Origin: Solirubrobacter pauli
GTDB lineage: Bacteria; Actinomycetota; Thermoleophilia; Solirubrobacterales; Solirubrobacteraceae
Assembly (NCBI RefSeq): GCF_003633755.1
Contig: NZ_RBIL01000001.1
Span: 2,589,426 to 2,653,425 of the forward strand
Direction of reading: 5' to 3'
DNA: 64,000 nucleotides
Positions 9,462 to 12,672 of this stretch are shown here, one piece after another. The notes beneath the pieces were generated by a model. That model was not told the DNA's origin. It did no database searches and was given only the letters and a program-made list of their open reading frames with translations. Both the position numbers and the translations under genes were made by a program. The number at the start of each line of letters is the position of its first letter. The first letter of the stretch is position 1.

Positions 9462-9553
9462 CGGAGCGGCGCCGGAATCGAACCGACCCACCGCCGGGTT
9501 ACGACGGCTGACGAGTTTTGAAGACTCGCTGGGGCACCAGCCCCGGCCACTCC
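9462..9553 (-). tRNA. selC: tRNA-Sec (anticodon UCA), selC
   Basis: A 92-nt selenocysteine tRNA. The acceptor stem is 8 bp (GGAGTGGC at 9553-9546 pairs with GCCGCTCC at 9470-9463, one T-G pair), followed by a 5-bp T stem GTCGG/CCGGC with loop TTCGATT; the 8+5 arrangement is the bacterial tRNA-Sec hallmark. The anticodon stem CGAGT/ACTCG closes the loop CTTCAAA, giving anticodon TCA. The D arm is GGGGC-TGGT-GCCCC, and a long variable arm follows. The discriminator is G, and CCA is not encoded. No selA, selB, selD or selenoprotein gene is in the window, but the organism should decode UGA as selenocysteine somewhere. Confidence 0.93.
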
Positions 9554-10260
9554 GCGGAGCAGCCTAACGACGCCAAGCCGCGGGCAAGGAAGCCCCAAGC
9601 TGCCTGTGGGAGACCTTCCCCATGCAGCCGATCCTCGACATCGCGGACCTCGCCCACCGACGGGAGGCGGCGGAGGCCGTCGCGGACGGCGCCGCGCTCT
9701 TCTACGCCTTCGGGAACTTCTGCGCGCTCGCCGCGAAGCCCGACCTGGAGACGCTGCACGCGATGAACGCGCTCAAGGGCCGCCCGCGCGACCAGGTCGG
9801 GTCGGTCACGACCACGCCGGAGCTCGGCAACCGCGTCTTCGACTGGGACGCCGTCCGGCTCCCCTGGAGCGCGCTGGTGGCCACGATGGCCGACCTGAAC
9901 GCGCTCGGCCCGATCGGGTTCCGCGGCCCGGCCGCCGCGCACGTCCCGTCCCACCTGACCGTCGACGGCACCGTCCAGCTGATCACGCCCGGCGACGCCT
10001 GCCCGTCCAACGGGCTGGTCGGCAACATCCTCGACCTGATCGGCGAGGAGCACCTGTACATCACGTCGGCGAACGCGAACAAGGACAACACGCACTACGC
10101 GATCGCCGAGATCCGCAAGGAGTTCGGCCACCGCGACGACGTCGTCTTCATCGGCCACCGCCACGAGCGAGCGAACCGGCGGCGCTATCCGCACCACCGG
10201 CCCTGCTCGACCTCGATCATCGGATTCGACTCAGGGGCGCTCGTGCTCGAGCGCCACGGG

Positions 10261-12672
<2,412 letters not shown>

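What the first reader, a model, noticed from the sequence alone, without database searches (positions are those of the whole stretch)
9462..9553. selC: the organism probably uses selenocysteine
The 8-bp acceptor, UCA anticodon and long variable arm identify tRNA-Sec. Selenocysteine use is patchy in Actinobacteria. UGA is a common stop here, so selenoprotein genes in this genome may be misannotated as truncated.
Basis: partly seen in the sequence, partly recalled or inferred. Interest (0 to 1): 0.65.

Follow-up and report, generated by a model that had tools for sequence, protein, structure and literature searches.

The report
Working selenocysteine tRNA in a soil actinobacterium
The window carries a normal gene for the tRNA that inserts selenocysteine, the 21st amino acid, and the rest of the same genome holds every partner gene plus a formate dehydrogenase whose active-site codon is UGA with the right RNA hairpin after it, so the organism very probably uses selenocysteine in the ordinary way.

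Summary
ARAGORN and Rfam both call one tRNA-Sec at 9462-9553 on the minus strand. It has an 8-bp acceptor stem, a 5-bp T stem, anticodon UCA and a long variable arm, and all five helices covary across 19 relatives. selA, selB and selD are present, each over its curated cut-off. A formate dehydrogenase alpha gene (G000:C1:3378868-3382143) has one in-frame TGA exactly where selenocysteine formate dehydrogenases carry that residue. Coding bias is the same on both sides of that TGA. A stem-loop with apical GGUCU follows and shows compensatory changes in relatives. No selenouridine synthase was found, so selD most likely serves selenocysteine only. Selenocysteine use is patchy in this class of actinobacteria: SelA passes its cut-off in 82 of 149 genomes. 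This is an ordinary member of a well-known system. The mild side findings are dispersed sel genes here, which relatives keep in one cluster, and glycine-reductase selenoproteins GrdA/GrdB in relatives that lack this formate dehydrogenase.

The parts
9462..9553 (-). selC, tRNA-Sec (92 nt, no encoded CCA)
9546..9553 (-). acceptor stem, 5' arm (8 nt, GGAGUGGC)
   Evidence: fold; 99.3% of cells paired across 19 relatives
9531..9544 (-). D arm, 5-bp stem and 4-nt loop
9511..9529 (-). anticodon arm, 6-bp stem, loop CUUCAAA
   Evidence: loop invariant in 19 relatives
9519..9521 (-). anticodon UCA, reads UGA
   Evidence: invariant
9488..9510 (-). long variable arm, 7-bp stem
9471..9487 (-). T arm, 5-bp stem, loop UUCGAUU
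9463..9470 (-). acceptor stem, 3' arm (8 nt); 9462 is the discriminator G
9554..9621 (-). intergenic stretch that should hold the selC promoter (TAGGCT, a TANNNT-type -10 candidate, lies a few nt upstream of the mature 5' end); inference, not tested
   Evidence: sequence read directly

Best explanation
This is a functional selC gene. Its product is serylated by seryl-tRNA synthetase, converted to Sec-tRNA by SelA with selenophosphate from SelD, and carried by SelB to a UGA codon that is followed by a SECIS hairpin in the mRNA. At least one client exists in this genome: the catalytic subunit FdhA of a membrane-linked formate dehydrogenase (fdhA, a 4Fe-4S fdhB and an NrfD-type membrane subunit, directly downstream of cytochrome bd genes). 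Its selenocysteine is residue 190 in the motif NQARI-Sec-HSS. Shown here by sequence: the tRNA, the three Sel proteins, the in-frame UGA at the catalytic position, the hairpin and its covariation. Inferred from established bacterial Sec biology: charging, SelB-SECIS delivery, actual Sec insertion and formate oxidation to the quinone pool.
For: tRNA identity and covariation. SelA, SelB, SelD over curated cut-offs in the same genome. SelB has the EF-Tu-like domains and the C-terminal SelB winged helix PF09107, the domain type known to bind SECIS. FdhA with one in-frame TGA; NF041513 at 1640 bits (cut-off 1400) on the read-through protein; best solved relatives are formate dehydrogenases, many named as selenocysteine-containing (1h0h, 1kqf, 8cm4 and others), and in 1h0h the residue aligns with a modified residue written X just before the conserved H. 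GC at third codon positions is 0.974 before and 0.973 after the TGA. SECIS: GGUCCCC-GGUCU-GGGGACC starting shortly after the UGA; Rfam SECIS_3 full-length match, E 6.2e-4, below its gathering score; 94% of pair cells kept across 19 FdhA genes against at most 54% for slid partners, with 12 two-sided changes; the model's only significant hit in the whole genome is this site (E 5e-9; the model was built with this site included). No SelU found, so selD has no other well-known job here.
Against: No expression, charging or mass-spectrometry data. The single FdhA hairpin by itself folds no better than shuffles (z -0.6 to +0.6), because the region is so G+C-rich; only the comparative evidence makes it convincing. 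The sel genes are scattered over 1.2 Mb rather than clustered as in relatives, which could in principle mark a decaying trait, though none of them is broken.
Confidence: 0.96

Rival explanations
1. selC is a relic: the tRNA gene survives but the organism no longer inserts selenocysteine.
For: The sel genes are dispersed (selD 1.59 Mb, selC 2.60 Mb, selA 2.79 Mb, selB 2.80 Mb, fdhA 3.38 Mb on the same contig), unlike the compact cluster of relatives.
Against: selA, selB, selD and a TGA-containing fdhA with conserved SECIS are all intact. A lost trait should soon show stops or the loss of one partner.
Confidence: 0.02
2. The gene is a class II tRNA (Ser or Leu type) or a UGA suppressor that only resembles tRNA-Sec.
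For: RF01852 also rings at about 50 bits on other tRNAs, including in control genomes without Sec (reading those hits as class II Ser/Leu tRNAs is inference).
Against: 58.1 bits against at most about 54 for the likely cross-hits, UCA anticodon, 8+5 acceptor/T stems, and alignment to 18 tRNA-Sec genes of relatives.
Confidence: 0.01
3. The TGA in fdhA is a sequencing error, or fdhA is a pseudogene, so there is no selenoprotein to serve.
For: Only one genome sequence of this species was at hand.
Against: The same TGA stands at the same residue in more than a dozen other genomes of the class. Both halves keep the same coding bias and the hairpin covaries.
Confidence: 0.01

Closest known systems
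Bacterial tRNA-Sec (selC), Rfam RF01852
   Same: 8-bp acceptor, 5-bp T stem, UCA anticodon, long variable arm, discriminator G
   Different: Nothing of substance; it scores lower (58 bits) than many relatives (60-80) and its D stem is 5 bp
Escherichia coli selenocysteine system (selABCD; fdhF/fdnG)
   Same: All four genes, UGA-coded Sec in formate dehydrogenase, GGUCU apical loop at the same distance from UGA as in fdhF (fdhF sequence from memory)
   Different: SelB is shorter (490 aa), the U that is bulged in the fdhF hairpin is paired here, sel genes are dispersed, no selenouridine synthase found
NCBIfam NF041513, actinobacterial formate dehydrogenase (formate_DH_Act)
   Same: Full-length match, 1640 bits, TGA at the active-site codon
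   Different: None of note

Membership tests
tRNA-Sec (RF01852) | 8-bp acceptor plus 5-bp T stem | tested here: met
   fold and covariation
tRNA-Sec (RF01852) | anticodon UCA | tested here: met
   invariant in 19 relatives
tRNA-Sec (RF01852) | long variable arm | tested here: met
   7-bp stem
tRNA-Sec (RF01852) | score over gathering threshold | tested here: met
   58.1 against 47 bits
tRNA-Sec (RF01852) | charged with serine and converted by SelA | not testable with these tools
   needs biochemistry
Bacterial Sec-decoding trait | selA in the genome | tested here: met
Bacterial Sec-decoding trait | selB with C-terminal winged-helix domain | tested here: met
Bacterial Sec-decoding trait | selD in the genome | tested here: met
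   Cys form
Bacterial Sec-decoding trait | at least one gene with in-frame UGA at a redox-active residue | tested here: met
   fdhA
Bacterial Sec-decoding trait | SECIS hairpin just downstream of the UGA | tested here: met
   the fold of the single sequence alone is inconclusive
Bacterial Sec-decoding trait | Sec actually inserted | not testable with these tools
   needs 75Se labelling or mass spectrometry
Actinobacterial formate dehydrogenase NF041513 | score over curated cut-off on the read-through protein | tested here: met
   1640 against 1400 bits

The most novel reading that the evidence does not exclude
The genome holds further selenoproteins of unrecognised families beyond FdhA. Only formate-dehydrogenase-type, GrdB, CMD/AhpD and SelD genes were checked, and no unbiased scan of the whole genome for in-frame UGA was possible.
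Probability: 0.25. Interest if true: 0.35.

Novelty: new member of a known kind. Interest (0 to 1): 0.2.

Why it matters
It settles, as far as sequence can, that an actinobacterium of this poorly studied class reads UGA as selenocysteine. Automatic annotation that ignores this will cut its formate dehydrogenase in two and hide its likely capacity to respire on formate. The wider class survey shows that selenocysteine use is common but patchy here and is tied to at least two different enzymes, formate dehydrogenase and glycine reductase.

Tried and rejected
Relic selC: rejected, since all partners are intact. Class II tRNA mimic: rejected on score, anticodon and comparative structure. GrdB-type glycine reductase in this genome: searched, not found. 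CMD/AhpD selenoprotein with CxxU in this genome: four CMD genes found, none with an internal stop. Selenouridine synthase as a second use of selD: not found. A second SECIS of the FdhA type: none, the next hit has E 1.9. Single-sequence folding of the SECIS: uninformative in this G+C-rich DNA. An all-against-all read-through scan over every fetched frame timed out; a filtered version worked.

Full report
What was claimed. It named the absence of selA/selB/selD as the refuting result.

The observation. ARAGORN finds one tRNA in the whole window, tRNA-SeC at 9462-9553 on the minus strand, anticodon TCA. Rfam agrees, with RF01852 at 58.1 bits over 9463-9553. Written 5' to 3' it folds as 8-bp acceptor, 5-bp D stem with 4-nt loop, 6-bp anticodon stem around CUUCAAA, 7-bp variable-arm stem, 5-bp T stem and a final unpaired G. 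It encodes no CCA. Across 19 tRNA-Sec genes from the same class, 95% of pair cells are standard against about 50% for slid controls, and 18 pairs show changes on both sides. The structure is real and under selection.

The machinery. The window lies at G000:C1:2589426-2653425 of a 7.1-Mb genome. That genome has selA at C1:2791637-2792908 (coordinates), selB at C1:2795570-2797042 (coordinates) and selD near C1:1589001-1589918, each over NCBIfam's curated cut-off. SelB, 490 aa, has the EF-Tu-like GTPase domain, domain 2, the SelB beta-barrel and the C-terminal SelB winged helix. SelB of the relatives is similarly short, for example a 511-codon frame in L093, so the length is a group feature rather than a truncation. 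SelD is the Cys form, GAGCGCK. No selenouridine synthase was found.

The client. A search for molybdopterin oxidoreductases found eight matches, and one had a stop inside, a TGA. Read through that TGA, the frame C1:3378868-3382143 gives 1091 residues with the motif NQARI-Sec-HSSSVPGLGTSFGRG, Sec at residue 190. It matches NF041513 (actinobacterial formate dehydrogenase) at 1640 bits. Its best solved relatives are formate dehydrogenases, many named as selenocysteine-containing, and in the printed alignment (1h0h) the residue falls on a modified residue written X before the conserved H. GC at third codon positions is 0.974 before and 0.973 after the TGA. The neighbours make functional sense: cytochrome bd subunits I and II just upstream, a 4Fe-4S subunit starting at the stop codon, and an NrfD-type membrane subunit. 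A formate-to-quinone route is the likely function (inference). Without Sec decoding the gene would be called as a 189-codon and an 864-codon ORF.

The SECIS. Shortly after the UGA a hairpin GGUCCCC-GGUCU-GGGGACC begins. The GGU that opens the apical loop stands at positions 22-24 counted from the U of UGA, the same place as in E. coli fdhF (that comparison is from memory). Rfam's SECIS_3 matches full length with E 6.2e-4, but at 29 bits it is below its gathering score of 63. Energy alone does not distinguish it from shuffles. Comparison does: in 19 FdhA-type genes of the class, 94% of pair cells are kept (54% at best for slid partners), with 12 two-sided changes in the stem while the loop stays nearly constant. 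A covariance model of this element finds exactly one significant place in the genome, this one, which was itself in the training set.

Distribution. SelA passes its cut-off in 82 of 149 genomes of the class. NF041513 passes in 11, all with one TGA in the frame, and several more distant or fragmentary relatives also carry it. The RF01852 tally (149 of 149) is inflated by what are most likely class II tRNAs at about 50 bits, as the control genomes show; by my count 72 genomes have a hit of 55 bits or more.

Relatives. In several relatives selD, selC, selA and selB sit in one compact cluster beside fdhA or beside grdAB. In the present genome they are spread over 1.2 Mb, with only selA and selB close together (2.7 kb apart, an acetolactate-synthase-like gene between, named from its sequence by eye). 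Three relatives with selC and SelA but no full-length formate dehydrogenase of this family (G011, G107, G124) carry GrdB with UGA in TATUGTGTRCG, and G011 also GrdA with UGA in CFVUTASGAM. SelD of G011, G107 and G124 is the Cys form. A 2006 survey stated that every Sec-decoding bacterium without FdhA has a Sec-containing SelD (PMC1794560); these genomes appear not to fit that early rule, though only FdhA of the NF041513 type and its distant relatives was searched class-wide.

Verdict. The observation and the interpretation are both right. The system is the textbook bacterial selenocysteine trait with formate dehydrogenase as client. FdhA is the commonest bacterial selenoprotein (PMC5029168), and NCBI already has a model for this actinobacterial enzyme. 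Searches for papers that link Sec to Solirubrobacter or Thermoleophilia gave nothing on point, so the specific case may be undescribed, but it is a new member of a known kind. The organism's name was not established; that it belongs near Solirubrobacterales is my guess from its gene content.

Noticed in passing
L093:12396-17307 (G011:C37) and L110 (G087:C11): Glycine-reductase cluster (component B subunit, GrdB and GrdA each with in-frame UGA, thioredoxin) beside selD-selC-selA-selB in relatives of the same family; G107 and G124 have GrdB with UGA but no full formate dehydrogenase of the NF041513 type.
   Followed up: partly
L097:10231-10821, L099:4964, L101:11394 (minus strand): CMD/AhpD-like protein with CHYU (UGA) in three genomes of another family of the class, a known type of selenoprotein.
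   Followed up: partly
L143 (G077:C24): Formate dehydrogenase with in-frame TGA in a 97% complete genome in which SelA, a true SelD and a clear selC were not found; assembly gap, contamination or trait loss.
   Followed up: partly
G000:C1 1589001-3382143: sel genes and fdhA dispersed over 1.8 Mb in this genome, whereas relatives keep them in one cluster.
   Followed up: partly
window 10261-12672 (minus): 803-aa protein with a C-terminal FTR1-type iron permease domain, beside a weakly Sua5/YciO-like gene at 9622-10398.
   Followed up: no
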